From positions 348,198 to 412,197 of the forward strand of contig WAEK01000026.1 in NCBI GenBank assembly GCA_011634665.1: a stretch of DNA of 64,000 bases, written 5' to 3'. This stretch comes from Mortierella sp. BCC40632. Lineage: Eukaryota > Mortierellomycota > Mortierellomycetes > Mortierellales > Mortierellaceae. Under the pieces are notes generated by a model, which was not told where the DNA came from, searched no databases, and saw only the letters and a list, made by a program, of their open reading frames with translations. Of this stretch, positions 22,614 to 64,000 are shown piece after piece (position 1 is the first letter of the stretch; every line of letters starts with the position of its first letter). Made by a program: the position numbers and the translations under genes.

Positions 22614-22648
<35 letters not shown>

Positions 22649-40820: not shown

Positions 40821-43352
40821 ATGATCGCGGGTTCCACCCTTGCCAAACGTAAGGATGATTCAGCAGCCGTCTCACTCCATTCAACCTACCCATGATCAGG
40901 CTCTGATCTACTCGAGACCTCGGAAATTTTCGTCAAACAACAAATAAAGAAAAGGGACCCCTCTCTCCGGGCAATGGGGTTCTTTTGATGAGTTGCAACC
41001 CTTCGGCATCCTTGGCGAGAAGAGCGGACATGGAATAAGTGAAAACATGAGCGCAGGATGCGATAGGATGATCTCCGGCAGCCATCTCCGAAGCGATTGT
41101 CGCTTTTCTCAGTCTCGGACATCTAGGCAAAGCCTTCGGACGATTTCCTCTTCGGGATTCAGGATGTTCGTGATCTGGATCAAAAAGAGCTTCTCCAACA
41201 TATCGCTCCTGCTTCCCTCGCACAATTGCCATATCCACAAGACAAGAAAATCCCTAACGCCTCTCTCACAAACCCTTTTTTCCCGCCCATTGTGTCTACT
41301 TAGAGTCCAAGCAGGTTGTTGCTGGACTTGTCCAGAAGGTAAATAAAACATACCCCAAGTTAGAGCAATCGATAGTTCGTGATTCAAGAGCGTGTCGATA
41401 CTCTGTATTCTTCCCTAACCTCTCTTTTTCTTTTATTTTTATAGCGCTTCGCTTCTGACTTGGTTATCTCTCCCAAGACTGGACGCTCTATCATCCGTAC
41501 CGGTGGTGGTGGACGGTAGGTTCTCGAAAGCCATTGTCAAGGGAGAAATTTCAGGAGGATGGAGTGTCATTGGACCCTGCAGTCCACAAGAGTTGCTACC
41601 GATCGCTAATCGTCTCGCCAACTGAATTTCATTTGCTCCGCCCCTTTCTTTTTTTTCTTTATAGCTCTTCCTCGAACGGTCATGTTGTCACCGTTTTTGG
41701 ATGTACTGGATTCCTCGGACGTTACCTCATCAACCGCTTGGGTAATACTATTTTTTCTTTTTTCTTAATGGTGGCACTGGGAATAGACACCAGGAAAGAG
41801 ATGACAAGCGATCTATTGTTTCTCTACTCACAAAACGAGTCTGTATTTTTTCTTTAATTCTGGGGAACCTTTGATAGCTCGCGATGGTTCCCACGTCATC
41901 GTCCCTTACCGTGATGAGGACGACATGCGCCACTTGAAGGTGATGGGCGACCTTGGAAAGATTATCCCCATGGAAATCCACCTCCGCAACAAGGACTCTC
42001 TTGAGGCTGCTATCCGCCACTCGGACACTGTCTACAACTTGCTTGGCCGTGATTATGAGACCAAGTAAGGGGAAATCGCGAAAAAAAAAAGAACCAGCTG
42101 TAGGATCTGTCGACTTTTATGATACCGACTTATCAACGCGAGAATCTAACTCATCTCGGCTCAATGTCCCGCTACTTCACACTCTTATTCAAATCCAGGA
42201 ACTTTTCCTTTGCCGATGTTCATGTCGAGGCTGCTGGAGTTCTTGCCGAGCTTTCCCAGAAGCACGATGTTGATCGCTTTATCCAGGTCTCTGCCTTGAA
42301 CGCCGACGTCAACTCTACTTCTCAGTTCTTGAGCACCAAGGTATGAGTGCTATCCCTCGACCATTGGGATAGGATGAAAAAATGAATGATATGCGGTCTG
42401 AGAGGATATAGCCGAGAGTAAATAGCTAATATGCAATGTTTTGTGTTTATTCGTTGACAATAGGCTCAGGGAGAGGAGCTTGTTCGCAGCATCATCCCCT
42501 CTGCTACCATTGTTCGCCCTGCCGTCATGTATGGACAGGAAGATCGCTTCCTTGCCCGTCTTGCTAGTATGTCTCTCTTTTCTATATTCTTTGTTGGATT
42601 GCAATCAATTGTTCTTGAGGGCCATGTAGCACTAACATGAATGCTGCGTATTCCCTCTCCACAGTGTCGCGCGGTCTTTCGGTTCGCATCAACGGCGGCA
42701 ACACAACTGTTCGTCCTGTCAATGTGTCTGATGTCGCCGCTGGCATGTTCCAAATGCTTGACGATAGCACCACTGCCGGCGAAACCTACGAGCTTGTCGG
42801 GTAGGATTCTGATGACGGAGCGCAAAAAAAAAAAAAAAAAGCCAGCGCTTCTCTCTCAGACAACACCAGAAACCTAACGAATATGAAAATACTCATACCT
42901 CTTTTAGTGACCAAGTCTATACCTACAAGGAGCTCATGGAATTCATCAAGCAGACCACCAACCTCGACATTGGTGATATCAACGTCCCCAAGCCCATTGC
43001 CTCCTTGATGGCCAAGGTCATGAACCTCCTCCCATGGCAGACTCTTGGCGCTGATGAGGTCGAACGCGTAAGTAGAAACGTCGTGTTTCTTGTAGTTCAC
43101 CCTTCTTTGTTTATTCTTTTGAGATGATCTAACATTAATCTTAAACCTACTCGCTGGATCCTTCATTAGATGATGATCAACGACAAGCTGACTGGAGTCA
43201 AGACCTTTGCCGATCTCGGCATTGAGCCCAGCTCGCTCGAGATTACTGGTATTCAGTACCTTCGCCGTTTCCGTTCCAACTTGTACAACGACGAGCCTCT
43301 CAAGAAGGGTGTTGTTGGCAAGAAGAAGGTCTTCCACGCTGGCTACCTGTAA
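40821..43352 (+). CDS. NDUFA9: Complex I 40-kDa subunit (NDUFA9/NUO40)
   Basis: Accessory subunit of mitochondrial NADH:ubiquinone oxidoreductase with an atypical short-chain dehydrogenase fold that binds NADPH structurally. Ten exons: 40821-40848, 41304-41338, 41445-41515, 41665-41741, 41878-42064, 42199-42340, 42464-42566, 42665-42800, 42908-43067 and 43170-43352. All phases agree and give 373 residues. The N-terminus (MIAGSTLAK, then VVAGLVQKRFAS) suits a mitochondrial presequence. The nucleotide loop is VFGCTGFLGRYLINRLA. Further landmarks are VYNLLGRDYETKNFSFADVH, RFIQVSALNAD, IVRPAVMYGQEDRFL and VRPVNVSDVAAGM. The C-terminal part (TFADLGIEPSSLEITGIQYL and a basic end) is as in fungal homologs. 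A very intron-rich gene with introns of 80-460 nt. Confidence 0.96.
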
Positions 43353-44051
43353 ATGGCATGCGCTTCCTCTTTGTTGATACACACCCGGCTCTCTCTCTCT
43401 CCTCTCCTTTTCTCCAACCCTCTCTCTCTTTCGTTTTACTGCTTCATCCCCACCCTTTCCTCTCATCAGACATGACATAAACCTATCCCCATACCTACTT
43501 TGTCCGACTATGCAGAAAAAAAAAAAAAAAAAAAAAAACAAGTCTAGATGTGCGAAAGAAAAATACAGGCACTATATACTTTTACGATGGAGTGGGTACA
43601 TCATGGCATCATGACTAACAGGCATGATGAGAAAAAAAAAATGCTTGGCGTCCTTTTTTTTTATGTCTGACATAGTCTTGGGAAAGGATTGGAACAGTGT
43701 CACTGGTCGGTTCTTGGTCTGACTGCTCAACAGCCATTGCTCTGCGCGTGACACCAAGTGCTCATGCATAAAAGAAGAGAGAGAGAGCGACGGGCGTCCT
43801 GGGAAACCCTTTTTTCCATTTTTTCTTCTTTGTTCCCTTGATACCACCCTGTATTCATCGTAAGCTGGGGATTCTCTTTCTTCTTTTCTTGGACCCTGAC
43901 TTTTATTGCCACGTAACTCTTTCCTTTTATCCTTTCCAGATCATCTACTGAAGAAAAAATACCCAACTCTCCCTCTCTCTCTCTTCTCCTTTTCAACAGC
44001 AACTATCATCTTCCTTTTAGCCCTTCTTACCTTCCCCCCACAACTCTCCAT
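43353..44051. other. Intergenic, 3' UTR and leader of the next gene
   Basis: CT-rich 3' flank, poly(A) at about 43517-43538, then a pyrimidine-rich leader before 44052. No gene. Confidence 0.5.
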
Positions 44052-46658: not shown

Positions 46659-46835
46659 GGTACAAACCGAATGTGTAACCTATTTTGTATGTGTGCGGTG
46701 TAGGTGTGTTCACATCTGTGCCTCACTCGTTTGAGTATGTGTGACGAGACATTTGGATCGAGAAATGCAACTTGTCTCCACTCCCTTCCATTCGTTTACA
46801 TTCATTGTTTATTCTTTCCACAGCACATTCATTTG
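46458..46835. other. Promoter region of the left F-box-like gene
   Basis: Contains a 34-nt poly(A) at about 46620-46653 and a CT-rich leader to the ATG at 46836. No gene. Confidence 0.5.
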
Positions 46836-49800
46836 ATGATGTCCAGCAGCATTACTTCCCGTGCCGGGATCACAGGTGTGTTCTACTGCTTTCTTGACCA
46901 TCCTAACATCAAAGTCTCATTCCAAAAAAAAAAAAAAAAAAAAAGGGTCTAACTAATAAGCCTATGCCTTGGTTATCTCCTCTCAATAGAAGGCAGTTTT
47001 CGGCAACAGCAGCGAATTCCCAATGAATGTCTCTTAATTATTATCCAAGAGTTCAAGTCCAATATCTCCATGCTCTTTAATCTCCTAACAGTGAACCGCT
47101 TCTTCTTTGAAGAGGCTGCGAAGCTGTTGATAATGAATAGTCTTAGATCGCTTTACTTCTGTTCCAGCTCTGAAGAGGTCTGGTATATTCGGGAACGTCG
47201 AATGGCCCTTATTTTTCGCTCGGCACTACAGCGCGAGTGGTTGAAACGACAAGGAACAATGGGCAGGAAAAATCAGCAAAAGTGGGAGCATCAACAAGAA
47301 AACGGGGCAGAGAAAACATCATTGGGTTGCCAGGATTGGATCACCACCGCTTCAGGTTGGCCTCAGTCTGTCCAAAATCGTGTCCATGGGAGTGAATATT
47401 TGGAGGACCTGGATTCGATTATGAATGAGTATGGGTTGACGCTCACCTACTCTTCACTTAATCCCAAGGAGTCATACTCTCAGCTGACTACAGTCGACTA
47501 CTCGTTGTATTTGTTGTCAATTTCCACCAATGACTACACATATTTTGATGCTGAGAAAATAGTCAAACTATGGCAACCAGGAGACTCAGACTCAGGGACG
47601 AATGTCTATCCAGGGGCAATTGAGGAGCAACAGGAGTCACTTAGAGAAAAAGTTACCATGCACGTCATCCATTTCTTAATTCAACATTGCTGTCAAAACA
47701 TCACCAAACTCAGGCTCCGCTTAAACAAGTCGGATTTTTACGTCCAGTTTGCATCAGTGATGTCGAATCTCAGAATGGTTCGATTCGATATGTCCAAATC
47801 CTTTGGCAACACTCTTCCATCCATACTCAATGCCGTCCGTCTTATTCGTGAGAACCAGGAGGCCTTTCCGCTCAAACGTCGGCTGGATCTGGAATTTTAT
47901 GAGGGTCCATACCAACGTACTCTCAATTACACTCGGGCTGACACTAGTCTGGACGATTGGTTGGACAATCGTCGAGGAGTGAAGGCCAAGTACATTGCTC
48001 GAAAGATGTTGTATGAAGCGGTTGGTTGCCCAAGGTCGATGGATGTAAGCCTCTGGCCTTGGTTTTATGAAGAAGCGGACTCGATCGACACCAGAGACCT
48101 CATGTCATTTGTGGATAGTGATGTTGACCGTTGGGATGCAGGGGAGGGCCCAGCAATAGCAACATTCCTGCGGCGTTGTACAGAACTACGAGAACTTGAA
48201 ATGGCCGTCGGACATCATACTCTGTTCCAATGGCTCCGTCCCTCCTCAACGACTATGGACTCAACAGGAGGATCTATTTTAATGACATTCCCTCAACAAC
48301 CTCTCAGAAGGCTTTCAAACCTAAAGCTGAAGTCCAACCGTGATTACTGGATTGTTTTTCATGTACTCAATGAAATCGTTGCAGCCTCTGGGGCGAGCCT
48401 CGAATCTATCACGATTAACCAAGGACGGTCTGACGGGTACTATCCAGAGGATGTAAGAGCAGACTTTGTGGGTAAATCTCAAGAGTTTCAAAGTATTCCT
48501 AGGGCAACTACCATTGGCTTGAATTGGTATCTTCCAAGGGTGCGCAAGATCGAGATAGCGTTTGGAGGAACCATATCTGTTGGATTGTTCGATCAATGTC
48601 CGCTTCTTGACAGCCTCTCTATCGAAAGCAGTGTAAATGACTTTTTATCTCGATATGATGATTCCGTGATTGAACAGGAACAGCAATTGGAATTCAAGAA
48701 GACTTTGAGACTTTTACCGACCTGGAAACTCCCTAGACTCAGAAGACTGCGTCTAGATGGCATGGTAGCAGTCCAGTTCGACTTTGAGTCAATCAGGTTC
48801 ATGCCCAATCTCCGAGATCTAGAATTGAGTCTGACGTTTGGTGGCTGGCTCTCAACATTTGCAAACATGTACATGGAGGTGTGTCCTGACAATATAAGGT
48901 CAATCCTCGTAAGTACTGGGTTTATGGATCTGACTTTCTTCGCCTTGTTCGCCTTGTTCACCTCATTGGCCCCCTCCCACTTCGCACCTCTTTTTGCTCT
49001 CTCATCACCCTCAGCTTCTATTTAACCTGCTTGCTAACTCGTTGGAATGTGGGATCAACTCTTCAGGGCATGACAGTGGATACCCCACCAAGTGAGGCCC
49101 AGACATCCAAGTTCTACCCTTGGAACTGGTCTTCAGAATCGCTTTCCTCACTTGATATCGCAGGTCCTGCAGCCACGATGTTTCATCTTGGACAGTTCAC
49201 TCTGTTTCCATCTCTTAAGAGACTTGCCATCACACCTCGCGACAGCGGTGACTACAAAATACTTCGGACACAAGAGGAGGCCCTGGCCAGGCTCTACTCT
49301 AGTCAGACCATTTTCCCAAACGAACCACCCTTCCATCTTGACAGCATTCCGGATCAAATCTCTGCCTCGGCTGTGGCTAAGGTCGAGCCTGAACTAGCAT
49401 CAACGGATCAGAGGGTCGATAGTGGAGCTATTTTGGACCTGTTGAAACTTCACTCCATGCGACCATATCCAGAGTACAGACTTCGATACATCTGCTTCTA
49501 TAGCGACTCGATTGTTATCAGTCCAGATGTCTGGTTCTACCTATTGAAAAGATGTGCGCCCGATCGCATTGATTTAGGTAGGCAAAAAGATCAGAGCTTG
49601 TACACACAAATACGTATTTTTGAGGAGGTACTCGAGATGATTGAGAAACTGGAGGATGTCCAGGATAGACCCAAGGAAGACACAGAGGCTCTGGTGGATG
49701 GAACACACCCAAGTGATGATCGGCACCAAGGAGAAAGATCAAGTAGAGGCCTTGTTGTGTCATTCCGAAGCTATAATCCACAGTTTGGTGATGGTGTGCT

Positions 49801-49945
49801 AACTGAATCTCACCAGAAGGCATTGGGTTTGGAGAAGATCTCCGAAGAGGAGAAAGAGAAATACGCGGCTAGACCAGGATGTCGGGTCTATCGTTTCGTT
49901 TACTATAGTGAAGATTGTTTTGTTCCGAGCAAGTTTTGTGAATGA
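46836..49945 (+). CDS. F-box-like/LRR protein, left paralog (945 aa)
   Basis: Large F-box-like protein with irregular leucine-rich repeats, a family greatly expanded in Mortierellaceae-type fungi (inference); such proteins usually act as substrate adaptors of SCF ubiquitin ligases. Exons: 46836-46875, 46990-48908 and 49067-49945, phases consistent. The F-box-like start at about 20-60 reads RIPNECLLIIIQEF, then LLTVNRFFFEEAAKLL. The body repeatedly shows LRR-like hydrophobic spacing (LPRLRRLRLDGM, FMPNLRDLELSL). The C-terminal part ends GCRVYRFVYYSEDCFVPSKF. Its structure and sequence are mirrored by the minus-strand paralog at 54649-57747. The last intron is conserved at the same place. A 57-nt (CT)n follows 70 nt downstream. 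Confidence 0.85.
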
Positions 49946-50008
49946 GTTTCATCGTCATCTGGATAGCTGATAGAGGAGAGCACGAGTATGTGTGCGGATC
50001 GAATAAGA

Positions 50009-50013
<5 letters not shown>

Positions 50014-50070
<57 letters not shown>
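50014..50070. repeat. (CT)n dinucleotide repeat
   Basis: 57 nt of CT lies just outside the left palindrome arm, between it and the left F-box-like gene; it is absent at the mirror position on the right side. Confidence 0.95.
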
Positions 50071-50071
<1 letters not shown>

Positions 50072-50262
50072 AGTCAATAATGTGTGCAAGAGTGAGAGCA
50101 ATGAGATCCGAAAAGTGAGAAAGAGAGAGATCCTACCACAATAGTTGCTGACTGGATGTTGGACAATTAAACATCAACTTCAGACTCTTTCCTTTCCTCT
50201 TAATGACAGATGAGTAGAGGGGAAGGTGGTGCTTGAGAAATCAACCTGTGCCCTCCACCTTT

Positions 50263-50448
50263 TCACCAAGTGTTAAAACAATTGCGAAATTTGACCGCGT
50301 TTGTTGTTTGACTTCCAGGTGTGGCCATGAATGCGTAGTAGTCCCAGTCAAAGTAACCGAATCTATATCTTGAGTCAAAAGAGTAATCTCCTATGTGTGC
50401 CGCACAGGGCCAGTATACACTACAATACTTTCCCTGAAACAGACACAT
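50263..50448 (-). other. Conserved 61-codon open frame, left A copy
   Basis: A frame of 61 codons with three Cys and many aromatics (CSVYWPCAAHIGDYSF, then YFDWDYYAFMATPGSQTT). It is identical in both arms of palindrome A and present, with an internal stop, at 63586-63771. It lies about 470 nt 3' of the secreted-protein gene on the same strand. It could be a relic exon of another secreted protein. Function unknown. Confidence 0.35.
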
Positions 50449-50915
50449 CGCTATCCAGACAGTGTTCCTTTCGCCTTGTGTTCCGGATACCGTTCTTATA
50501 TTTCATCACAGTCTCTCCATCTGCTTCACATCTATAATCCATTGCATGCCTCTAGTCTACTACACACCCCTCATCCGATCCACAAATCCATGTGCTCATC
50601 AGCCTGCCACTACAAAATCATACAAGACGACTCGCTTTTATAATACTCGCGAGAAAAGTGAATATAAAGATGAGGGACGGGAGCAGCAATAGCCTGTAGG
50701 TACTCATTCGACCTGGATCCCAGAGAGAGAGCGAGTAAAAGACAGAAACGAGAACAGAGAGTAGAATGGTTGTAGAAGAAAGGTGTAATATGTGATTTAT
50801 TATAGGGTAATCTTCGAATAGATGAGAGCTAGATGAGATCTCATGTGTATGTCGTGTATGAATGTTGAATGTTGAATGTTGTACGTTGTATGTTGTGTGT
50901 TGTGTGTGTTCGAAT

Positions 50916-51484
50916 TTAGGCCTTGACACTGAACTTGATGACCTCGAGGAGGGGACACGCTCTCTCCCAGACCTTGTTGGCAAGAAGAACTCGCAAGTAC
51001 CCTTGTACGAGTCAAAGCAGAAGGATCCATCGTCGTGGCATCCCTTGGGGAAGTTGTCGACGGCATCAATCGATCCTACCTCGGGATACACAACAGCTCG
51101 AGATTGTCCCCAGGCAGAGTTGACATAGCCACTGAAGCGGAAGCTGTAGACAGTTGTACCGAATCCACCACCGTTACCACCAATGCTAACGTTGATGCTG
51201 CGGTTGTCGGTGCGAACAAACAGGTTGGTACCAAACTCGTGCTTGGAGTTGTTGGTGTTGGATCGAGACTTCTCCTTGGTGCAGGTGTACTCGGTAGCGC
51301 CGTTCGACAAGGGGGTGATCTTGGTAGTGCCAGGGACACAGCCCTTGAAGTAGTGAGCCTCAATGGCCTCATCCATCGAAGCATAAGACTGGCCAGCGGG
51401 GTCGGTAGTGGCGACAGGAGCAGGAGCAGCAGTCGCCGACAACAAGGCCATGGCAAGAACAGGGAGAGTCAAAAAGAACTTCAT
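50916..51484 (-). CDS. Small secreted six-Cys protein SSP, copy A-left (frameshifted as read)
   Basis: Unknown family; predicted secreted protein of about 189 residues. A clear signal peptide opens it (MKFFLTLPVLAMALLSATAA), with no membrane span after. Landmarks: SMDEAIEAHYFKGCVPGTTK, NSKHEFGTNLFVRTDNRS, FSGYVNSAWGQSRAVVYPE and CEFFFANKVWERACP in the intact frame, with six cysteines in the mature part, so three disulfides are possible. As read, one T is missing from the TTCTTC(T)TTGCC stretch near 50980-50986, so the last 27 or so codons are out of frame. The right-arm copy is intact there. A leader with a possible intron and a TATA-like box (51721-51728) lie upstream. Role could be effector, toxin-like or adhesive; I cannot tell. 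Confidence 0.75.
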
Positions 51485-51720
51485 GGTGTGATTTTTCTAA
51501 TGAGAGAGAGAAATGAAGTCAATCGTGTTAATACTTGTGGGTTCCAGGTCACACAAGAACAGAGTAAAAAGAGGGTTACAAGGTAGAGAGAGAAAAGAGA
51601 TGATTTGATTTTGAAGGGTTGGACAAGAGAGAGTTTGTGTGAGTGAGTGAGTGTTGGAAGACCTTGGTAAGGCAGATGATGTGTTGTGAAGTAATGAAGA
51701 AAGAGAGGGGTAGAGGATTA

Positions 51721-51728
51721 CTTTTATA
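51721..51728 (-). promoter_or_regulatory. TATA-like box of SSP copy A-left
   Basis: TATAAAAG on the minus strand, about 240 nt upstream of the start codon, mirrored exactly in the right arm. Confidence 0.5.
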
Positions 51729-52182
51729 CTTGAGAGGTTGAGAGGTTAAGAGGCTGTGTGTGTGAGAGGGGGAAGGAGAGTGAGAGAGCGAGAGAGAGAG
51801 AGAGAGAGAGGAATGTTTGTTAAGGTCCAGGCCAGAAATTGACATCTTATTGCCAAGCGACCGTTGTCGTGAAGATAGCGACCAACGAACAAACACGACA
51901 ATCCCCAGGGGTCAGATCTCAAGACCCTAGTTGGCCCAATCGGGCAAGACTTATGTCCCTAATAGACAGGGACAGACAGGACATACATGACAGACGAGGC
52001 TTTGACACTGCATGAAGGAGGGAAGGGGCTGAAGTTGGTACTTCACTAGTATGCTCTGTATGAACCTTATTGAACAACCCTCAATAATTTTTGTCTGTCT
52101 GACTGTCTGTCTGTCTGTAGCTTTTTTTTTTCCCGGCTGTAGCGCACGCTTCTATAACAGCAGACTACCAGTGAACGTTAGT

Positions 52183-52242
52183 GTTGGCTCTATCCAATCT
52201 CAGCCATTGTTGGCTCTGTCCAATCTCAGCCATTGTTGGCTG
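52183..52242. repeat. 26-bp tandem repeat in spacer A
   Basis: Two units of 26 bp starting GTTGGCTCT, differing at one base, plus a partial third unit. Confidence 0.85.
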
Positions 52243-52822
52243 TTTGAAACCCATCAGCCATTCTCTTTACAGCCGTTGTGTGGCTGATGCTGCTATGCTG
52301 CTATGCTGCTGTGTCGCCATATACAACTGTAGACTGTGGCTTTAGATGGGACGTATCTCTGTAGCGGGGCAGGCTCCTGGATAACCTTAACAAAACATTT
52401 CAAAGTCACTTTAACTGGTCAATTGACCTGAGTCTGGTACACGTTGTTGGCTGCCTTGGAGATGGCCGAATTTCCGTTTCACCACAATTGGCTGTATGCC
52501 CTTTTTTTTCCCATCAACTGAAGAGTAGAATAATTTTTTTGAGCCGATGTGGGTATGAGAAAATTGACATCTGGGGCCACTATTGGTTCAAATTCCTCGG
52601 TCAGATAACATTCCTCTATGTCATGCAGTGTCAAAGCCTCGTCTGTCATGTATGTCCTGTCTGTCCCTGTCTATTAGGGACATAAGTCTTGCCCGATTGG
52701 GCCAACTAGGGTCTTGAGATCTGACCCCTGGGGATTGTCGTGTTTGTTCGTTGGTCGCTATCTTCACGACAACGGTCGCTTGGCAATAAGATGTCAATTT
52801 CTGGCCTGGACCTTAACAAACA

Positions 52823-52862
<40 letters not shown>

Positions 52863-52909
52863 TCCCCCCCTCTCACACACACAGCCTCTTAACCTCTCAA
52901 CCTCTCAAG

Positions 52910-52917
52910 TATAAAAG
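52910..52917 (+). promoter_or_regulatory. TATA-like box of SSP copy A-right
   Basis: TATAAAAG about 245 nt upstream of the ATG at 53160; it matches the mirrored box in the left arm. Confidence 0.5.
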
Positions 52918-53159
52918 TAATCCTCTACCCCTCTCTTTTTCTTCATTGCTTCTTCACAACACATCATCTGCCTTACCAAGGTCTTCCAACACTCACTCAC
53001 TCACACAAACTCTCTCTTGTCCACCCCCTTCAAAGTAAATCATCTCTTTTCTCTCTCTCTACCTTGTAACCCTTTTTTACTCTGTTCTTGTGTGACCTGG
53101 AACCCACAAGTATTAACACGATTGACTTCATTTCTCTCTCTCATTAGAAAAATCACACC

Positions 53160-53730
53160 ATGAAGTTCTTTTTGACTCTCCCTGTTCTTGCCATGGCCTT
53201 GTTGTCGGCGACTGCTGCTCCTGCTCCTGTCGCCACTACCGACCCCTGCTGGCCAGTCTTATGCTTCGATGGATGAGGCCATTGAGGCTCACTACTTCAA
53301 GGGCTGTGTCCCTGGCACTACCAAGATCACCCCCTTGTCGAACGGCGCTACCGAGTACACCTGCACCAAGGAGAAGTCTCGATCCAACACCAACAACTCC
53401 AAGCACGAGTTTGGTACCAACCTGTTTGTTCGCACCGACAACCGCAGCATCAACGTTAGCATTGGTGGTAACGGTGGTGGATTCGGTACAACTGTCTACA
53501 GCTTCCGCTTCAGTGGCTATGTCAACTCTGCCTGGGGACAATCTCGAGCTGTTGTGTATCCCGAGGTAGGATCGATTGATGCCGTCGACAACTTCCCCAA
53601 GGGATGCCACGACGATGGATCCTTCTGCTTTGACTCGTACAAGGGTACTTGCGAGTTCTTCTTTGCCAACAAGGTCTGGGAGAGAGCGTGTCCCCTCCTC
53701 GAGGTCATCAAGTTCAGTGTCAAGGCCTAA
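53160..53730 (+). CDS. Small secreted six-Cys protein SSP, copy A-right (frameshifted as read)
   Basis: Near-identical to the copy at 50916-51484 but on the other strand. Here the C-terminal part is intact, with CEFFFANKVWERACP and the TAA at 53728. Instead one extra T in GACCCC(T)GCTGG near 53245-53248 breaks the frame just after the signal peptide and propeptide-like APVATTDP. Removing it gives 189 residues. The two mirror copies therefore have complementary one-base lesions at different sites. Signal peptide, six Cys and the Asn-rich middle are as in the left copy. Unknown function. Confidence 0.75.
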
Positions 53731-54195
53731 ATTCGAACACACACAACACACAACATACAACGTACAACATTCAACATTCAACATTCATACACGACATACA
53801 CATGAGATCTCATCTAGCTCTCATCTATTCGAAGATTACCCTATAATAAATCACATATTACACTTTTTCTTCTACAACCATTCTCTCTGTTCTCGTTTCT
53901 GTCTTTTACTCGCTCTCTCTCTGGGATCCAGGTCGAATGAATACCTACAGGCTATTGCTGCTCCCGTCCCTCATCTTTATATTCACTTTTCTCGCGAGTA
54001 TTATAAAAGCGAGTCGTCTTGTATGATTTTGTAGTGGCAGGCTGATGAGCACATGGATTTGTGGATCGGATGAGGGGTGTGTAGTAGACTAGAGGCATGC
54101 AATGGATTATAGATGTGAAGCAGATGGAGAGACTGTGATGAAATATAAGAACGGTATCCGGAACACAAGGCGAAAGGAACACTGTCTGGATAGCG

Positions 54196-54381
54196 ATGTG
54201 TCTGTTTCAGGGAAAGTATTGTAGTGTATACTGGCCCTGTGCGGCACACATAGGAGATTACTCTTTTGACTCAAGATATAGATTCGGTTACTTTGACTGG
54301 GACTACTACGCATTCATGGCCACACCTGGAAGTCAAACAACAAACGCGGTCAAATTTCGCAATTGTTTTAACACTTGGTGA
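54196..54381 (+). other. Conserved 61-codon open frame, right A copy
   Basis: Exact mirror of 50263-50448, with the same predicted 61 residues. It lies 3' of the A-right SSP gene on the same strand. Confidence 0.35.
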
Positions 54382-54648
54382 AAAGGTGGAGGGCACAGGT
54401 TGATTTCTCAAGCACCACCTTCCCCTCTACTCATCTGTCATTAAGAGGAAAGGAAAGAGTCTGAAGTTGATGTTTAATTGTCCAACATCCAGTCAGCAAC
54501 TATTGTGGTAGGATCTCTCTCTTTCTCACTTTTCGGATCTCATTGCTCTCACTCTTGCTCATTACAAGGGCTCGAGGGGGGGTGGAACCCTAAAAAAAAT
54601 CTCATACATGCTCTCGCTTCTTCCGAGCAGTACTGGCAAAAAATATGT

Positions 54649-57600
54649 TCACCCATAAAATTTGCTCGGAACAAAGCAGTAGTTGCTATGGGTAGTGAAA
54701 TAATAGACCCGACATCCTGGTCTTGCCGCGTATTTCTCTTTCTCTTCTACGGAGATCTTCTCCAAACCCAATGTTCTCTGGTGGGATCTGGTTAGCGTAC
54801 TATCACAGTCCCGTAGGCTATATCCAGAGAATGATACAGTCAGACCTCCATTTGATCTTTCTTCTTGGTACCGATCACCACTTGAGTGCATTCCTTCCAC
54901 TAGAGCCTCTGTGTCTTCCTTGGGTCTATCCTGGACATCCCCCAGTCTCTTGATCATGCTGAATACTTTCTCAAGATCACGTATTTGTGTATACAGGCTC
55001 CGATATTTTTGTCTACCTAATTGAATGTGATCGGGTGCACATTGTCTCAATATGTAGAGCCAGACGTCGGGACTGATATTTGTTAAGTCGCTATTGAGTT
55101 TGAGGTATCGAAGTCTGCAATCTAGATGTGGTCGCGTGGACTGAGGTTTCAATAGGTCCAAAGTAGCTCCACTATCGACCCTCTGATCCGTTAATGCTAG
55201 TTCAGGCTCGACCTTAGTCACAGCCGAGGCAGAGATTTGACCTGGAACACTGCCAAAATGCAAGTAAGGCCCAAATGGGAGAATGGTCTGATTAGAGTAG
55301 AGCTTAAGCAGGGCCTCCTCTTGTGTCTGAAATATTTTGTAGTCACCGATGCTGCGGGGTGTGATGGCAAGTCTCTTAAGAGACGGAAACAGAGTGAACT
55401 GTCCGAGATGGAACATTATGGCTGCAGGACCTGCGATATCAAGTGAGGAAAGCGACTCTGAAGACCAGTTCCAAGGGTAGAACTTGGATGTCTGGGCCTC
55501 ACTTGGTGGGGTATCCACTGTCATGCCCTGAAGAGTTGATCCCACATTCCAAATGAGTTAGCAAACAGGTTAAATAGAAGCTGGTGGTGATTAAGAGAGC
55601 AAAGAGAGATGCGAAGTGCGAGAGGGCCAATGAGGTGAACAAGGCGAACAAGGCGAAGAAAGTCAGATCCATAAACCCAGTACTTACGAGGATTGACCTT
55701 ATATTGTCAGGACACACCTCCATGTACATGTTTGCAAATGTTGAGAACCAGCCATCAAACTCCACACTCAATTCCAGATCTCGGAGCCTTGGCATGAACT
55801 TGATCGACTCAAAGTCAAACTGGACTGCCACCATGCCAACTAGACACAGTCGTTCCAGTCTAGGGAGTTTCCAGGTCGGGAGGAGTTTCAGTGTCTCCTC
55901 GAATACCAATCGCTGCTGCTCTTGTTCAATGTTCAAACTATTAAATTTTGATAGGTCATTGCAGGCATTACTCTGGATCTCGATGCTCCGGAGAAGCGGA
56001 CATTGGTCGAACGATCCGACAGATACGATCCCTCCATATGAGATATTGATCTTGCTCACTCTTGGAAGATACCAGTCAAGACCAATCGTGGTGGGTCTAG
56101 GAATACTTTGGAACTCTAGAGATTCACCTACAAAGTCCCCTACTTCATTTCCTGGATAGAATCTGTCGAGCCACCCTTGATTGACATTTATGAACTCGAG
56201 GCTCTCTCCAGATGCTGCGATGATATCATTGAGCGCGTGAATGATAATCCAGTAGTTGCGATTGGATGAGAGATGTAGCTCTGAAAGCTTCCCAAGGGGT
56301 CGCTGTGGTAAAATCGATAATGGGGGTCTCCCTGTCGGTTCCAAGGTAGTCGAGGAGCGGAGCCATTGGAACTGAGAGAGATGTCCCACGCCTATGACAA
56401 GAGTGTGTAGCTTTGTACAACGCCGCAGGAATGTCTCAATTGCTTGGCTCTCTTCAGAAACCCACCGATCAACGTCATGATCCACAAAAGACTCGAGATC
56501 TCTGGTGTCGATGGAATCGGCTTCTTCATAGAACCAAGGAAAGACACTCACATCCATCGACCTTGGACGACCAACTGCCTCATACAACATCTTTCGCGGG
56601 AGGTGCTTGGTTTTCCATCTTTGACGAATTTCCAACCAGTCCTCCAGGTAATTGCCACTTTGACCAGGGTCGAAAAGGTCGTTATCGTAATCCTTACAAA
56701 ATTCCAAATCCAATGGACGTTTGAGTGGAAAGGCCTGTTGGTTCTCACGCACTAGACGGGCGACATTGAGTGTAAATGGGAGAGGGTCGTCAAAGGGGAG
56801 TAGCGTATCAACTTTCAATATTCTGAGATTCGGCATCTTGGTCGCAAACTGGAGATAAAAAGCTGATTCTTCCAGGTCAAGCTCGAGTTTGGTGATGTGT
56901 TGACCACAATGTTGAAGAATAAAATGTGTGAGACGTCTGGCAATCCTTTCATTGAGTGGGTGCTGTCGTTCTTCATCTGTCTCTGGATAAGCCGGTGTTA
57001 TCGAGTTTGAATCCTTTGGTTGCCATAGCCTGACTATTCTCTCCATATCACAATAGCTATAGTCTGCGCTGGAAATTATCGATAAATATGCCGAGTAGTC
57101 GACTGTAGTCAACTGAGAGTACAGCTTCACTTGATGAACAGAGGGAAAGGTGAGCGCCAATCCATATTCGTTCAGGATCGAATCCAGGTCCTCCAAATAC
57201 TCAATCCCTTGGACGCGACTTTTGACAGACTGAGGCCAACTCGGGGTGAAGGTAGTCGAATCCTGGATATCCAATGTTTGTTCTTCCACCTCGTTTCCTT
57301 CATTGTGCTCGCGGTTCCTCTGAGCTTGTCGGATCAATGCTTCTTGTCGTCTCAGCCATTCACGTTGCAACGCTGAGCGAAAAATAAGGGTCGCTTGGTT
57401 TTCCCAACCATCCAGGATATCTTCGCCGTATTCAAGTGTCCTGTGATGCATCAATTTCACAGCCTCTTTAAAGAAGAAGCGGTTCACTGTCAAGAGATTT
57501 AAAAGCGTGGAGAGATGGGACTTGAGATTCTGGATAACCATGGCGAGACATTCGTTTGGGAGACGCTGTTGTAGCCGACTGTCTTCTATTGAGAGAAGGG

Positions 57601-57747
57601 AGCAGAAGCGTAGGCTGGTTAGCTTGCCAGTCCTTTTTTCTTTTTTCTTTTTTTTTTTGGAAAGAGACTTTGATGTCAGAGCAAGCAAGGCATTCAGTAG
57701 TGTGTGCCTACGTTACCGGCATGGAGAGCAAGGTCGCCAGCCATCAT
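54649..57747 (-). CDS. F-box-like/LRR protein, right paralog (935 aa)
   Basis: Inverted paralog of the gene at 46836-49945. Minus-strand exons: 57747-57717, 57585-55688 and 55527-54649; the last exon has the same length as in the left copy (879 nt) and both introns sit at the same positions. The F-box-like region reads RLPNECLAMVIQNL, then LLTVNRFFFKEAVKLM. The same LRR landmarks appear (KLPRLERLCLVGM, FMPRLRDLELSV), as does an almost unchanged junction (MEVCPDNIRSIL, then GMTVDTPPSEAQTSKFYPWN). Elsewhere the paralogs differ clearly in residues and by short indels, far more than the inner palindrome arms do. The end is GCRVYYFTTHSNYCFVPSKFYG. Likely an SCF-type adaptor, by family. Confidence 0.85.
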
Positions 57748-57922
57748 CGAATGAGTGTGCTTTTGGAATGAGAAGAGCAAATGGAGACAAGATGGAGCTA
57801 GGACAAGGCGCATTTCCTGATCAGAAAGCCTCGTCACATGCACAACCAAACAATTGAGGCCAGAAACCCGTCCCCCGTTCCTGTTGTCTTAGAGCCATAC
57901 TGTTCTAAAAAAGTGACTCTCA

Positions 57923-57961
<39 letters not shown>

Positions 57962-58325
57962 AGCAACATAGTTCACAAGTGGGTGTGGACCTTGTGGAGC
58001 TGTGAAGGGATAATAGCTCAATATGCCTTGGTCAAAACCCTCCACGACGTATTATCAACCGGTACGAGGGGAGAGAAAGGGAAGGCCACTTCTAATTTGG
58101 TGAAAGAGAAGCTCCTTTGGCTGTGTTTGACAGGGTTCAGTGCCCTGTCCCCATGTTGGGTTGGAAGGAGAGTCCACAATCCCTCTCGAGACACGCGCAT
58201 CCTTGAGCCATTTACATAAGATATCCATGCTATAACATATCTACTACTTAAAGTAATCCAATCTCTTCACTCAATGGCGTACAACGCTACGAACCGTCTC
58301 TCATAATGCCTGGCTTCCAGAAGAG
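57748..58325. other. Gap between palindromes A and B
   Basis: Promoter side of the right F-box-like gene, followed by a 36-nt poly(A) at 57924-57959 and unremarkable sequence. No gene is seen. Confidence 0.5.
57924..57959. repeat. Poly(A) tract, 36 nt
   Basis: Pure A run in the gap between the two palindromes. Confidence 0.95.
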
Positions 58326-60371
58326 AGGCATCAGATAGGCTCCTTCGAGAATGCGAGTTACAAGAAATAAGGATAGAAAAACCTGTAATCTGGCTCCTAG
58401 ATTTCCTTCTATCTGTCGGTGTTTGCTTGGGAAGAAGATGGAGAGTCAGGGCCACTTCTCTAACTCACTAGTGAGTACCGATACAATGCCCCTCCAACAT
58501 ACATCCAGTAACCATCCAACTATCCAACCATCCAACCACTTAACCCCTATCCTTTACTAAACACTCTCCAAGAAGACCAACAACAATCTCAATCCAAAAT
58601 ACTTGAGCAGTGCTAATGGCCAAGAACCTATCGACAATCTTCAAAGGCACAGTCTCTCTTAATCTTGAAGGGTAACCTTGGCCAGGATGAGGAGAGTTGT
58701 TCAGCACCTCCAAGAGCGGGAACACATAGTAGACAAGTCACGAGTCCTTGGTATCATTCGAGAGATTCATCCAATAGCCTTCACGAACCAACCAATCATC
58801 CGACTGTCTCTGCAGCATCCAAACTATGAAAACTCATCGGAGAGTAGTCAGTCCTCATCCATTGTACACCTCTCATCTAATCCACAAGAATAACAGCTTC
58901 TTATCCTGACACCGCCAATCATTCAAGGAGCATCGTCTCGAAAATACTCGTCTCTCGGATCAAAAGAGAAAGCAATGTGGAGTGTCAAGTAGTAGCCGAA
59001 ATTGACAATGTGACGTCTCTGGATGTCTGTGGAGGACTCTCATTCAAACACAGAACTTTGACTTCATCCTGAGAATCTGAGATCGAATTGAGGGAGCAAA
59101 CAACATGGTCTCGGAAGACTAGAGACAGCTTATTAAAAGTAGAGATAGAGTGTGGAGCGGACCTAAGGATACCAGGACATACATGACAAGTAGTAGTAGC
59201 TGTCTCTACTCTTTGAACAAACAATCAAGGAGACGACAACCGAAACACAACAACGAAAGTCAAGAGAAATCACACTTGAAGAATCAATAGATGCAAGGTA
59301 TGGTTTATTACAGAGTAGGAGGGTGGTCTTCGAGTGGTAGCTTCAGGCTACAGATGCATGGGAACACATTAACTCGTTTTCTGGGTTTATGCTGCCACAC
59401 TGAACTTGATCACCTGGAGAATAGGGCATGCTCTCTCCCACACCTTGTTGGCAAAGAAGAACTCGCATGTTCCCAAGTACGAGTCAAAGCAGAAAGATCC
59501 ATCCTGGTGGCAGAGCTTGGGGAATCTGTCGACAGCATCAATCGTAGGAGCCTCAGAATACACAACAGCACGAGCTGTTCCCCAAGCAGAGTTGACATAA
59601 CCACCGAACCGGAATCCATAGACTGTTCCTCCAACTCCTCCACCCGTTGCCACCGATACTGATACTGACGCTGCGGTTGTCGGTACGAATGAACAGGTTG
59701 GTACCAAACTCGTGCTTGGAGTTGTTTGTGTTGGATCGAGACTTCACCTTGGTACAGGTGTACTCAGTGGCACCGTCCGACAAAGGAGTGACCTTGGTGG
59801 TACCAGGAACACATCCCTTGAAGTAGAAGGCTTCAATGGCCTCATCCATCGAGGCATAAGACAGACCAGCAGGGTCGACGACAGCGGCAGGAGCAGGAGC
59901 AGGAGCAGCAGTGGCCGACAACAAGGCCATGGCAAGAACAGGGAGAGTCAAAAAGAACTTCATGATGTGATTTCTATTGAGAGATATGAAGAAAAGCAGA
60001 AAGGAAGATCAATCGTGTTAATGGTTGTTTGTTCCAGGTCAAAAAAGATCAAAAAAGCACTAGATGAGAGAGGAGGAAACAGAGACTTCAGTGCAAAAAG
60101 AACAAGAAGAGCAAGAAGGGTTGTTACCTTGAAGAGTTGGACAGGGGGCGGGTCTGTATGTGAGTGAGTGAGTGTTGGGACCTTGACGAGGCAGACGATG
60201 TGTTGTGAAGTGGTGAGGAGAGGGAAGGACCAATGTTCGTTTTATACCTGAGAGAGACAGAGTGGGATAGTTACTGAAGTCCAGGCATGTCTTTTGTGTC
60301 TTGTTGCTTGATTGTCTCTTTGACAAGCAACATAATCCCAGAGACACTAACCGTGAGCTCGCATCTCCATG
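58326..60371 (+). repeat. Palindrome B, left arm
   Basis: About 2.05 kb repeated in inverted orientation at 61244-63293. The match runs from GAGAGGCATCAGATAGG-type sequence at the outer end through the SSP gene to GAGCTCGCATCTCCAT at the inner end. Most differences I found are homopolymer length changes (T5/T3, C5/C4, A4/A5). Weaker similarity continues inward to about 60453. Confidence 0.92.
59387..59963 (-). CDS. Small secreted six-Cys protein SSP, copy B-left (frameshifted as read)
   Basis: Second subtype of the SSP family, about 191 residues. The same signal peptide is followed by a longer Ala-Pro run and VVDPAGLSYASMDEAIEAFYF. Landmarks KGCVPGTTKVTPLSDGATEY, YGFRFGGYVNSAWGTARA and CEFFFANKVWERACP are kept, with the same six Cys. 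One extra G in the GGCAACGG(G)TGG stretch near 59644-59648 breaks the frame in the middle; upstream and downstream halves are each intact. Relative to the A copies there are many substitutions, so B is an older paralog. Function unknown. Confidence 0.75.
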
Positions 60372-61367
60372 GTGCCTAGGGGTCGACTCCCTGGACCAAC
60401 CCCTGGGCCAACCCTAGGAATCGAAACTCAGGACCATAGTTAGCCCGCAACGCTGACCGATTGGGTAGAGCTGCAGTCGTGCAGACGGGGAGACGGGATA
60501 GGATAACGAAGATGGGACGGGAAGTGCACTTCAACAACGGGCTCTGCCTGAACCTAGATGGACCACCCTCAAAATTATTTTAACCGTGGCACCTTCTTTT
60601 GCCAGTTCAACTGTAGCGCACGCTTCCATAGCAAATAGACAGCTCTCTTTGGTTACACTCAGAATAGTGTTCAACACCCAAAGATGCTGTTGGCCGTGTG
60701 AAACCTCCAACGGTCCACTTACAACCGTTGCGCAGAGTGTGTTTCCCCTCTTTTCCACTCTGGCTTGTGCAGCCGCTGACTACTGCTGTGTCGCTGGATT
60801 GTTTTCCTTGTGGCAGGGCAGGCTCCCGGATATGTTTCGTGCAACCTTTTAAAATGGCTTTAACCTATCAAAGAGCTGGGGTCTGGTGCACGCTGCCAGG
60901 TATGCAGAAGCCAGCCGAATTTCCGTTTTGCCAGCATTACTTATGCGAGAGTTCTTCTTTCCCACCAAGGTACCGTGTGTATGGCCACACACTATTCTAG
61001 GTCGAAGTGTAGATGCGAGTTTAATTCGTCTAGAGACTCTGTATGCAGACTCGAACATTCTCAATCTTGTCCGTTGAACTTTTTATTTTTTTGTTAGCAC
61101 ACATTCCTCTCTTTAGAAGGCATAGAGCATTCCTTGTGTCCCCCTGTCCAGTCTGTTGGGAACACACTCTGTCCGTTGCGGGCTAACTATGGTCCTGGGT
61201 CTCGATTCCTAGGGGTTGTTCCCTGGGAGTTGAACCAGGTACAATGGAGATGCGAGCTCACGGTTAGTGTCTCTGGGATTATGTTGCTTGTCAAAGAGAC
61301 AATCAAGCAACAAGACACAAAAGACATGCCTGGACTTCAGTAACTATCCCACTCTGTCTCTCTCAGG

Positions 61368-61375
61368 TATAAAAA
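61368..61375 (+). promoter_or_regulatory. TATA-like box of SSP copy B-right
   Basis: TATAAAAA about 275 nt upstream of the ATG at 61649, at the same place relative to the gene as in palindrome A. Confidence 0.5.
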
Positions 61376-61486
61376 CGAACATTGGTCCTTCCCTCTCCTC
61401 ACCACTTCACAACACATCGTCTGCCTCGTCAAGGTCCCAACACTCACTCACTCACATACAGACCCGCCCCTGTCCAACTCTTCAAG

Positions 61487-61638
61487 GTAACAACCCTTCT
61501 TGCTCTTCTTGTTCTTTGCACTGAAGTCTCTGTTTCCTCCTCTCTCATCTAGTGCTTTTTTGATCTTTTTTGACCTGGAACAAACAACCATTAACACGAT
61601 TGATCTTCCTTTCTGCTTTTCTTCATATCTCTCAATAG
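61487..61638 (+). other. Likely 5' UTR intron of SSP copy B-right
   Basis: Begins GTAACA after CTTCAAG, has a pyrimidine-rich 3' part and ends CTCAATAG; the coding ATG follows ten bases later. Confidence 0.5.
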
Positions 61639-61648
61639 AAATCACATC

Positions 61649-62225
61649 ATGAAGTTCTTTTTGACTCTCCCTGTTCTTGCCATGGCCTTGTTGTCGGCCA
61701 CTGCTGCTCCTGCTCCTGCTCCTGCCGCTGTCGTCGACCCTGCTGGTCTGTCTTATGCCTCGATGGATGAGGCCATTGAAGCCTTCTACTTCAAGGGATG
61801 TGTTCCTGGTACCACCAAGGTCACTCCTTTGTCGGACGGTGCCACTGAGTACACCTGTACCAAGGTGAAGTCTCGATCCAACACAAACAACTCCAAGCAC
61901 GAGTTTGGTACCAACCTGTTCATTCGTACCGACAACCGCAGCGTCAGTATCAGTATCGGTGGCAACGGTGGAGGAGTTGGAGGAACAGTCTATGGATTCC
62001 GGTTCGGTGGTTATGTCAACTCTGCTTGGGGAACAGCTCGTGCTGTTGTGTATTCTGAGGCTCCCTACGATTGATGCTGTCGACAGATTCCCCAAGCTCT
62101 GCCACCAGGATGGATCTTTCTGCTTTTGACTCGTACTTGGGAACATGCGAGTTCTTCTTTTGCCAACAAGGTGTGGGAGAGCATGCCCTATTCTCCAGGT
62201 GATCAAGTTCAGTGTGGCAGCATAA
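61649..62225 (+). pseudogene. SSP copy B-right, multiple frameshifts as read
   Basis: Mirror of 59387-59963. The middle that is broken in B-left is intact here, but compared with it this copy has an extra C near 62064, an extra T in TCTGCTTT(T)GAC near 62127, an extra T in TTCTTCTTT(T)GCC near 62160, and lacks two bases (GA) in GTGGGAGAGAGC near 62178. The first 138 codons are open with the signal peptide and the first two Cys. I label it pseudogene because of four lesions, but they have the pattern of consensus errors and the gene may be intact in the organism. Confidence 0.6.
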
Positions 62226-63529
62226 ACCCAGAAAACGAGTTAATGTGTTCCCATGCATCTGTAGCCTGAAGCTACCACTCGAAGACCACCCCCTCCTACT
62301 CTGTAATAAACCATACCTTGCATCTATTGATTCTTCAAGTGTGATTTCTCTTGACTTTCGTTGTTGTGTTTCGGTTGTCGTCTCCTTGATTGTTTGTTCA
62401 AAGAGTAGAGACAGCTACTACTACTTGTCATGTATGTCCTGGTATCCTTAGGTCCGCTCCACACTCTATCTCTACTTTTAATAAGCTGTCTCTAGTCTTC
62501 CGAGACCATGTTGTTTGCTCCCTCAATTCGATCTCAGATTCTCAGGATGAAGTCAAAGTTCTGTGTTTGAATGAGAGTCCTCCACAGACATCCAGAGACG
62601 TCACATTGTCAATTTCGGCTACTACTTGACACTCCACATTGCTTTCTCTTTTGATCCGAGAGACGAGTATTTTCGAGACGATGCTCCTTGAATGATTGGC
62701 GGTGTCAGGATAAGAAGCTGTTATTCTTGTGGATTAGATGAGAGGTGTACAATGGATGAGGACTGACTACTCTCCGATGAGTTTTCATAGTTTGGATGCT
62801 GCAGAGACAGTCGGATGATTGGTTGGTTCGTGAAGGCTATTGGATGAATCTCTCGAATGATACCAAGGACTCGTGACTTGTCTACTATGTGTTCCCGCTC
62901 TTGGAGGTGCTGAACAACTCTCCTCATCCTGGCCAAGGTTACCCTTCAAGATTAAGAGAGACTGTGCCTTTGAAGATTGTCGATAGGTTCTTGGCCATTA
63001 GCACTGCTCAAGTATTTTGGATTGAGATTGTTGTTGGTCTTCTTGGAGAGTGTTTAGTAAAGGATAGGGGTTAAGTGGTTGGATGGTTGGATAGTTGGAT
63101 GGTTACTGGATGTATGTTGGAGGGGCATTGTATCGGTACTCACTAGTGAGTTAGAGAAGTGGCCCTGACTCTCCATCTTCTTCCCAAGCAAACACCGACA
63201 GATAGAAGGAAATCTAGGAGCCAGATTACAGGTTTTTCTATCCTTATTTCTTGTAACTCGCATTCTCGAAGGAGTCTATCTGATGCCTCTCCTTTTGGCT
63301 TCCAGACGTGATGAGGAACAGCTCATAGTGCCGTATGCCAGTAGATGAAAAGATTGGATTTCCTTGTCTAGAACATGTACCATATTCAAACGGCTCAAGG
63401 TTATTCGTGTCTTGAGAGAGGTTCCGTGATAATAAGTGACCTCCACAGTTCACAATGTAGATTATGGATCTCAATTTTTCACGCACACTGTTCTCAAACC
63501 ACAGGAACGGCAGCTTTTGGCCTCACTTG

Positions 63530-64000
63530 TAGACGAGTAGAGGGAAAGGTGGTGCTTGAGAAATCAACCTGTGCTCTCCACCTTTTCACCAAGTGTTAAA
63601 ACGATTGCGAAATTTGACCGCATCTGTTGTTTGGCTTCCAGGTGTGGCCATGAATGTGTAGTAGTCCTAGTCAAAGTAGCTGAATCTATATCTTGAGTCA
63701 AAAGAGTAATCTCCTATGTGTGCCGCACAGGGCCAGTATACACTACAATACTTTCCCTGAAACAGACACATCGCTATCCAGACAGTGTTCCTTTCGCCTT
63801 GTATTTCGGATACCGTTCTTATATTTCATCACTCTCTCTCCATCTGCTTCACATCTATAATCCATTGCATGCCTCTATTCTACTACACACCCCTCATCCG
63901 ATCCACAAATCCATGCGCTCGTCAACCTGGATCCCAGAGAGAGAGCGAGTAAAAGACAGAAACGAGAACAGAGAGTAGAATGGTTGTAGAAGAAAGGTGT
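63530..64000 (+). repeat. Third, partial copy of the palindrome A outer arm, cut by window end
   Basis: Matches the left arm of palindrome A (about 50208-50786) in the same orientation, with scattered substitutions and a deletion of roughly 110 nt at about 63927 (corresponding to about 50605-50719). This is the 3' flank of an SSP gene, so a fifth, minus-strand SSP copy should lie just beyond the window. Confidence 0.85.
63586..63771 (-). pseudogene. Conserved 61-codon frame, third copy with internal stop
   Basis: Homolog of 50263-50448 with the same length and several substitutions; the Trp of the FDWDYY-like segment is TAG here (complement of 63667-63669). Confidence 0.4.

What the first reader, a model, noticed from the sequence alone, without database searches (positions are those of the whole stretch)
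46836..64000. Array of large palindromes pairing F-box-like/LRR genes with small secreted protein genes
The last 17 kb is built of mirror units: F-box-like(+), SSP(-), spacer, SSP(+), F-box-like(-), then a second SSP palindrome, then the start of a third copy. Inverted arms of 1.9-2.05 kb with spacers of 0.6-0.9 kb are unstable in most genomes, yet two stand side by side. Seen directly: the mirrored genes, arms and spacers. Inference: an amplifying locus that evolves by inverted duplication, with a secreted product and an intracellular ubiquitin-type adaptor kept together. I know of no described system with this layout.
Basis: partly seen in the sequence, partly recalled or inferred. Interest (0 to 1): 0.9.

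Follow-up and report, generated by a model that had tools for sequence, protein, structure and literature searches.

The report
Mirror-image secreted-protein genes kept identical
At the broken end of one contig of a soil-fungus genome, a gene for a small secreted protein sits in mirror-image pairs whose two halves appear to copy over each other, much like the palindromes of the human Y chromosome, while the neighbouring F-box-like genes look like ordinary members of a big family that happen to lie beside them.

Summary
The layout is real. Two inverted repeats carry small-secreted-protein (SSP) genes: arms 50083-52015/52621-54561 (98.7%, 605-nt spacer) and 58255-60452/61174-63360 (97.4%, 721-nt spacer). 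The first lies inside a mirrored F-box-like/LRR pair only 76% identical. The window's end is the end of contig C26. A second copy of the system ends contig C20, which speaks against a one-off read fold-back.

The four arms of the second palindrome give the key result: in the outer arm, 19 two-by-two sites group arms within each locus; at the inner tip, 11 group the same arm across loci. Most likely the palindrome existed before the two loci separated and its arms were later homogenised by arm-to-arm gene conversion.

All seven SSP genes found in this genome lie in these two loci. The F-box-like family has dozens of members elsewhere, without SSPs, some in inverted pairs, so the "pairing" is local. 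Every named SSP homologue is from Mortierellaceae; the duplication is lineage-specific, under purifying selection (dN/dS about 0.17). Only 2 of 7 copies are open from end to end; the breaks are mostly run-length indels, probably consensus errors. The protein's function is unknown. A known kind of structure in a new setting.

The parts
46715..49945 (+). F-box-like/LRR gene A, left outer mirror arm (ORFs 47070-49025 and 49031-49945)
   Evidence: 75.9% inverted match to 54654-57864; 61% protein identity to copy B with one in-frame TAA
50083..52015 (.). SSP1 palindrome, left arm
   Evidence: 98.7% inverted match to 52621-54561
50916..51484 (-). SSP1 gene copy A (frame broken near its 3' end by a 1-nt deletion)
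   Evidence: stop position read from the sequence
52016..52620 (.). SSP1 palindrome spacer; elsewhere found as its first 68 nt at the end of contig C20, plus three short repeat matches
52621..54561 (.). SSP1 palindrome, right arm
53160..53730 (+). SSP1 gene copy B (frame broken after the signal-peptide region by a 1-nt insertion)
54649..57864 (-). F-box-like/LRR gene B, right outer mirror arm (ORFs 55499-57688 and 54649-55545)
   Evidence: F-box-like N-terminus in alignment A3, read by eye
58255..60452 (.). SSP2 palindrome, left arm (C26a)
   Evidence: 97.4% inverted match to 61174-63360
59387..59963 (-). SSP2 gene copy A (frame broken by a 1-nt insertion)
60453..61173 (.). SSP2 palindrome spacer; 99.6% identical and in the same contig orientation in locus C20
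61174..63360 (.). SSP2 palindrome, right arm (C26b)
61649..62225 (+). SSP2 gene copy B (several 1-2 nt indels; end taken from the mirror position of copy A)
63531..64000 (+). Start of a further SSP1-type unit (3' flank only), cut off by the contig end
   Evidence: matches 50208-50606 (95%) and 50708-50786 (99%); contig ends here

Best explanation
A lineage-specific amplification of a Mortierellaceae small-secreted-protein gene. SHOWN: the SSP gene exists as head-to-head (divergent) pairs in inverted repeats of about 2 kb per arm, at two loci on different contigs, next to members of a large F-box-like/LRR family; identity along the arms is mosaic. INFERRED: an SSP gene was duplicated in inverted orientation within an F-box-like gene cluster, giving palindromes; whole palindromes were then copied to a second locus; since then the arms of each palindrome have been homogenised by gene conversion (a broken arm repaired from its inverted partner), with further exchange between loci over the coding core. 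The effect would be several near-identical copies of one secreted protein under purifying selection, with the F-box-like genes as neighbours and mostly outside the converted tracts. What the secreted protein does is not known.
For: Four-arm test on the SSP2 palindrome (recounted): of 1857 gap-free columns 56 vary: 23 private to C20b, 3 private to C20a, 19 within-locus, 11 arm-orthologous, 0 crossed. The 30 two-by-two sites form two runs, 19 within-locus (C26a 58599-59166) then 11 arm-orthologous (60371-60428); P 3.7e-8 if sites were independent. Outer zone (58584-59210): C26a/C26b 0/627, C20a/C20b 8/630, between loci 21-25/627. Further out (columns 90-330) C26a and C26b do not differ while C26a and C20a differ at 43 sites. 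Inner tip: arms differ 11/171 in both loci, the same arm across loci 0/183 and 0/171. So the palindrome looks older than the split of the loci, and identity inside each locus younger than the palindrome. SSP1: arms A and B have 0 substitutions over 50100-50700 while the C20 unit is 70-76% identical to them over the first 400 nt and 96.5% after; over 48500-48900 C20 equals B (0 substitutions) but is 68-88% to A. SSP2 spacers are 99.6% identical between loci. SSP1 and SSP2 are sisters (100/100) in a tree of 13 proteins; dN 0.096, dS 0.553 between the two open C20 copies.
Against: Only two loci of one assembly, both at contig ends where assembly is weakest; no reads were available. The assembly may hold redundant sequence: stretches of contigs C31 and C37 are 97.8% identical over 3.5 kb, so near-identical copies on two contigs are not unique to this locus; however the flank of C26 (window 36000-44000) and of C20 (933499-935499) each occur once as near-exact sequence. 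Five of seven coding copies carry frame-breaking indels, which means either consensus errors, and then fine differences are suspect too, or decay, and then selection for dosage is doubtful. The within-locus pattern could also come from a renewed inverted duplication that reused the old inner tips. The core is nearly identical between loci, so exchange between loci is needed as well. At the outermost edge (columns 10-85) C26a and C26b differ at 22 sites, so homogenisation does not reach the arm end. Sites in a tract are not independent, so the P value is only a guide.
Confidence: 0.68

Rival explanations
1. Recent inverted duplications, formed separately in each locus (for example by template switching between pre-existing inner tips), with no ongoing gene conversion; arm identity just reflects youth.
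For: C26 arms differ at 0/627 in the outer zone next to tips that differ at 11/171, which reuse of an older short inverted repeat could give. Inverted pairs also occur in the neighbouring gene family.
Against: Both loci share the same spacer (99.6%), the same inner tips and, on the left side, nearly the same outer end (C26 58255/58279 against C20 949532), so the palindrome looks inherited as a whole. The C20 right arm is truncated, so its outer end cannot be compared. SSP1 shows the same kind of mosaic.
Confidence: 0.17
2. Assembly artefact: fold-back or chimeric long reads, or arms collapsed and polished to each other at a contig end, or C20 and C26 as redundant versions of one locus.
For: Both loci end contigs. 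Four of four C26 SSP copies and one of three C20 copies have 1-2 nt indels, with 0 substitution columns among four SSP2 coding copies. No TTAGGG x4 in the assembly, so the ends are not shown to be chromosome ends. Contigs C31 and C37 hold a 97.8% identical stretch, so some redundancy is possible.
Against: A simple fold-back would not have a unique spacer and arm-specific tips, nor recur on another contig with locus-specific differences in both arms. F-box-like arms at 76% cannot be a fold-back. The flanks of the two loci differ and are each single.
Confidence: 0.1
3. A functional module in which the secreted protein and the F-box-like protein are co-inherited partners.
For: F-box-like and SSP1 lie side by side in three of the four SSP1 units seen (C26 A, C26 B, C20).
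Against: SSP2 pairs have no F-box-like gene inside their arms; the C20 unit's F-box-like gene is truncated and the 63531 fragment shows none. The F-box-like query has 71 matches on nine contigs, the SSP only two sites. F-box-like arms are mostly not homogenised (76% overall).
Confidence: 0.04
4. A foldback-type mobile element carrying the SSP gene.
For: Long inverted repeats around a short spacer, present at two sites.
Against: All 19 matches of 58100-64000 lie on C26 and C20 only (best candidates only are scored); no target-site duplication seen by eye at 58255/63360 or at the C20 left edge.
Confidence: 0.01

Closest known systems
Inverted repeats with divergently or convergently oriented paralogue pairs in Caenorhabditis (Zhao et al. 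2007, PMC1803023; abstract, part 1 of 2 of Results, and Discussion read)
   Same: Head-to-head paralogues; at F44E5.4 palindromic arms of 2207 bp around a 126-bp spacer; arms more alike within a species than orthologous arms between species; pairs duplicated as a unit, with partial decay of outer parts.
   Different: There the comparison is across species; here it is across two loci of one genome. Here two palindromes stand side by side within an F-box-like cluster, and the product is probably secreted.
Human Y-chromosome palindrome P6 (Hallast et al. 2013, PMC3723533; abstract and outline read)
   Same: Arm-to-arm gene conversion as the cause of arm identity, with tracts of a few kb (mean 2068 bp there).
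   Different: Arms exceed 99.9% identity there, and events were counted among 378 Y chromosomes of known phylogeny; here conversion is inferred from site patterns in one genome and the arms are only about 2 kb.
Other F-box-like/LRR clusters of the same genome (L053, L054, L055)
   Same: Same protein family; neighbours 64-72% identical; L054 and L055 are inverted pairs, L053 a direct pair plus a 251-column inverted match.
   Different: No SSP genes and no near-identical arms. L054 and L055 were picked because one search showed opposite-strand neighbours, so they are not a random sample.

Membership tests
Gene-converting palindrome (Y / Caenorhabditis type) | Long inverted arms around a short unique spacer, genes in the arms | tested here: met
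   1.93-2.2 kb arms, 605 and 721 nt spacers, one SSP gene per arm
Gene-converting palindrome (Y / Caenorhabditis type) | Arms more alike within a locus than corresponding arms between copies | tested here: met
   Outer arm of SSP2: 0/627 and 8/630 within, 21-25/627 between. Not so for the coding core (identical in all four) nor for the inner tip (reverse pattern)
Gene-converting palindrome (Y / Caenorhabditis type) | Palindrome older than the arm identity | tested here: inconclusive
   11 arm-specific differences at the inner tip shared by both loci, same spacer favour it; renewed duplication from the old tips is not excluded
Gene-converting palindrome (Y / Caenorhabditis type) | Conversion events seen among related individuals or strains | not testable with these tools
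   No second strain; this genome has no relatives in the search tool
F-box protein | F-box domain by profile | tested here: inconclusive
   Window ORFs give no F-box hit at E<=1, nor do three homologues of other species. PF12937 is over its cut-off at C2:2712400-2712510, inside the N-terminal end of family member C2:2710561-2712522, 36% identical
Small secreted effector | N-terminal signal peptide, small size, conserved Cys | tested here: inconclusive
   189-191 aa, hydrophobic N-terminus ending in a likely cleavage site (by eye), four invariant Cys in eight sequences; no signal predictor run, secretion not tested
Small secreted effector | Acts on another organism | not testable with these tools
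Foldback-type transposon | Dispersed copies with target-site duplications | tested here: inconclusive
   Matches on C26 and C20 only (best candidates scored); no duplication seen at the edges by eye

The most novel reading that the evidence does not exclude
The C26 and C20 ends are two sides of one larger array: alternating SSP1 and SSP2 palindromes that convert between arms, flip their spacers and trade cores with each other, so that a fungus keeps a multi-copy secreted protein uniform by palindrome conversion. Consistent with this, both contigs break inside SSP1 units, and the SSP2 spacer has the same contig orientation in both loci although the F-box/SSP1 unit next to it lies to its left in C26 and to its right in C20.
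Probability: 0.25. Interest if true: 0.6.

Novelty: new member of a known kind. Interest (0 to 1): 0.38.

Why it matters
Palindromes with converting arms are best known from sex chromosomes. A case with two loci in one fungal genome, with inner tips that seem to record the old arm differences, would let arm-to-arm conversion be measured in what is probably a culturable organism, and would show one way in which a family of secreted proteins is kept uniform. It also warns that such loci can end contigs and show broken reading frames in assemblies, so copy number and integrity of secreted-protein genes there are easily misjudged.
Full report
WHAT IS THERE. The window is C26:348198-412197 of a 49.9-Mb, 62-contig genome, and its last base is the last base of that contig. 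The SSP genes are head to head, about 1.7 kb from start codon to start codon. With simple repeats masked, the rest of the window has no self-match of 100 nt or more at E 1e-10, and one control stretch of contig C1 (L056) none of 150 nt or more.

IDENTITY ALONG THE ARMS. The F-box-like arms average 76% and the SSP1 arms 98.7%. In 200-nt bins the F-box-like part ranges from 63 to 96% (highest at 48900-49300), falls to 60% in the bin before 50083, then jumps to 100%. Three other clusters of this F-box-like family were compared: L054 (72%) and L055 (64%) are inverted pairs, L053 a direct pair (72%) with a short inverted match. I had picked L054 and L055 for their opposite-strand neighbours, so this shows that mirrored pairs occur without SSP, not how common they are.

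A SECOND LOCUS. Contig C20 ends (958311) in a related array: an F-box-like gene at 942113-944236 (three in-frame TGA over its match), the SSP2 palindrome at 949532-954285 (96.6% to C26 58279-63037, same orientation), then, after a join at 954285/954286 without visible microhomology, the 3' part of an F-box-like gene, an SSP1 gene, and the contig end 68 nt into the SSP1 spacer. The window left of 46780 has no match of 150 nt or more on C20:923000-958311. Samples of both flanks are single: window 36000-44000 matches otherwise only in short pieces, and C20:933499-935499 otherwise only a 74% relative on C1 and short pieces. So C20 does not look like a plain allele of C26. Against this, short stretches of contigs C31 and C37 are 97.8% identical, so the assembly may hold some redundant sequence. 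With the SSP protein as query the genome gives ten matches: nine belong to the seven SSP copies of these two loci, one is weak (E 0.089, C20:884933-885190). The F-box-like query gives 71 matches on nine contigs, some of them pieces of one gene.

THE FOUR-ARM TEST. The SSP2 palindrome is present twice, so four arms can be compared. Of 1857 gap-free columns 56 vary: 23 private to C20b, 3 private to C20a, 19 grouping arms by locus, 11 grouping the same arm across loci, none crossed. The 19 lie in the outer arm (C26a 58599-59166), the 11 at the inner tip (60371-60428), with no mixing. In the outer zone the two C26 arms differ at 0 of 627 positions, the two C20 arms at 8 of 630, arms of different loci at 21-25 of 627. 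Further out, where C20b is missing, C26a and C26b do not differ over columns 90-330 while C26a and C20a differ at 43 sites; at the very edge (columns 10-85) C26a and C26b differ at 22 sites. In a coding stretch of 476 positions all four agree. At the inner tip the arms differ at 11 of 171 in both loci, yet each arm equals its counterpart in the other locus (0 of 183, 0 of 171). The simplest history is one palindrome, then two loci, then homogenisation of arms within each locus that stopped short of both ends, plus exchange of the core between loci. A renewed inverted duplication reusing old tips is the main rival. SSP1 shows a similar mosaic: A equals B over 50100-50700 (0 substitutions) where C20 is 70-76% identical over the first 400 nt and 96.5% after; C20 equals B over 48500-48900 where A is 68-88%.

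THE SECRETED PROTEIN. The two copies open as assembled (191 and 189 aa) have a typical secretory N-terminus (by eye) and are 85% identical. Homologues: 8 proteins by single sequence, 14 by profile. The 11 with an organism name are from Podila, Lobosporangium, Actinomortierella, Entomortierella, Linnemannia and Mortierella, all genera of Mortierellaceae in the NCBI taxonomy; 3 have no name. The F-box-like query found 3 proteins (of the 7997 candidates scored), from Lunasporangiospora and Podila, of the same family. That places this genome in or near Mortierellaceae (inference). SSP1 and SSP2 are each other's closest relatives (100/100; 2 of 10 inner branches of the tree are well supported), so the duplication is in this lineage as far as sampled. 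dN 0.096, dS 0.553 by NG86 between the two open copies points to purifying selection. Before the start codons both subfamilies carry TATAAAA and a possible leader intron (GTAAC...TAG; by eye). No known domain or fold was found.

READING FRAMES. Two of seven SSP copies are open from end to end (C20 SSP2a, C20 SSP1); all four C26 copies and C20 SSP2b have 1-2 nt indels. Among the four SSP2 coding copies there are 7 indel columns and 0 substitution columns; among the three SSP1 copies 2 and 4. All but one of these indels lie in a run of one base or a short repeat (my reading). Indels with few substitutions fit consensus errors in repeats better than decay; this is inference.

THE F-BOX-LIKE PROTEIN. 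The N-terminus reads as an F-box-like motif (by eye), but no Pfam F-box hit was obtained for the window ORFs or for three homologues. A family member on C2 does overlap a PF12937 hit over the cut-off. The genome has 151 PF12937 matches at E<=1, over a hundred of them above the cut-off. The label is likely but not proven for these copies.

VERDICT. It belongs with gene-converting inverted repeats known from Caenorhabditis (PMC1803023) and the human Y (PMC3723533). I know of no such case for a secreted-protein family in this fungal group, but the literature searches are too narrow to claim that none is in print.

Noticed in passing
L009:3054-5006 (C20:946053-948005, minus strand): 650-aa cysteine-rich open frame between the F-box-like gene and the SSP2 palindrome of locus C20; no Pfam family, one chance-level NCBIfam match.
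   Followed up: partly
C20:954285/954286 (L010:1286/1287): Join of the truncated SSP2 right arm to the middle of an F-box-like gene, a rearrangement breakpoint or assembly join, without microhomology visible by eye.
   Followed up: partly
window 63922-64000: The contig-end fragment lacks about 100 nt that SSP1 arms A and B have (around 50607-50715), so it is a further, distinct SSP1-type unit.
   Followed up: no
L060 (C31:120000-123500) and L061 (C37:8000-11500): 97.8% identical over 3.5 kb in opposite orientation, with 24 mismatches and 54 gap positions: a redundant contig, allele or recent duplication.
   Followed up: partly
G000, many contigs: F-box-like domains (PF12937) are very numerous in this genome, over a hundred matches above the curated cut-off.
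   Followed up: no
L055:2682-8510 (C6): A convergent F-box-like pair with the same mirror layout as in the window but no SSP between: a natural comparison for the state without the SSP palindrome.
   Followed up: partly
window 29163-30347 and 22398-22991: Ordinary genes in the flank: a DNA-repair metallo-beta-lactamase (DRMBL) and a DJ-1/PfpI family protein.
   Followed up: no
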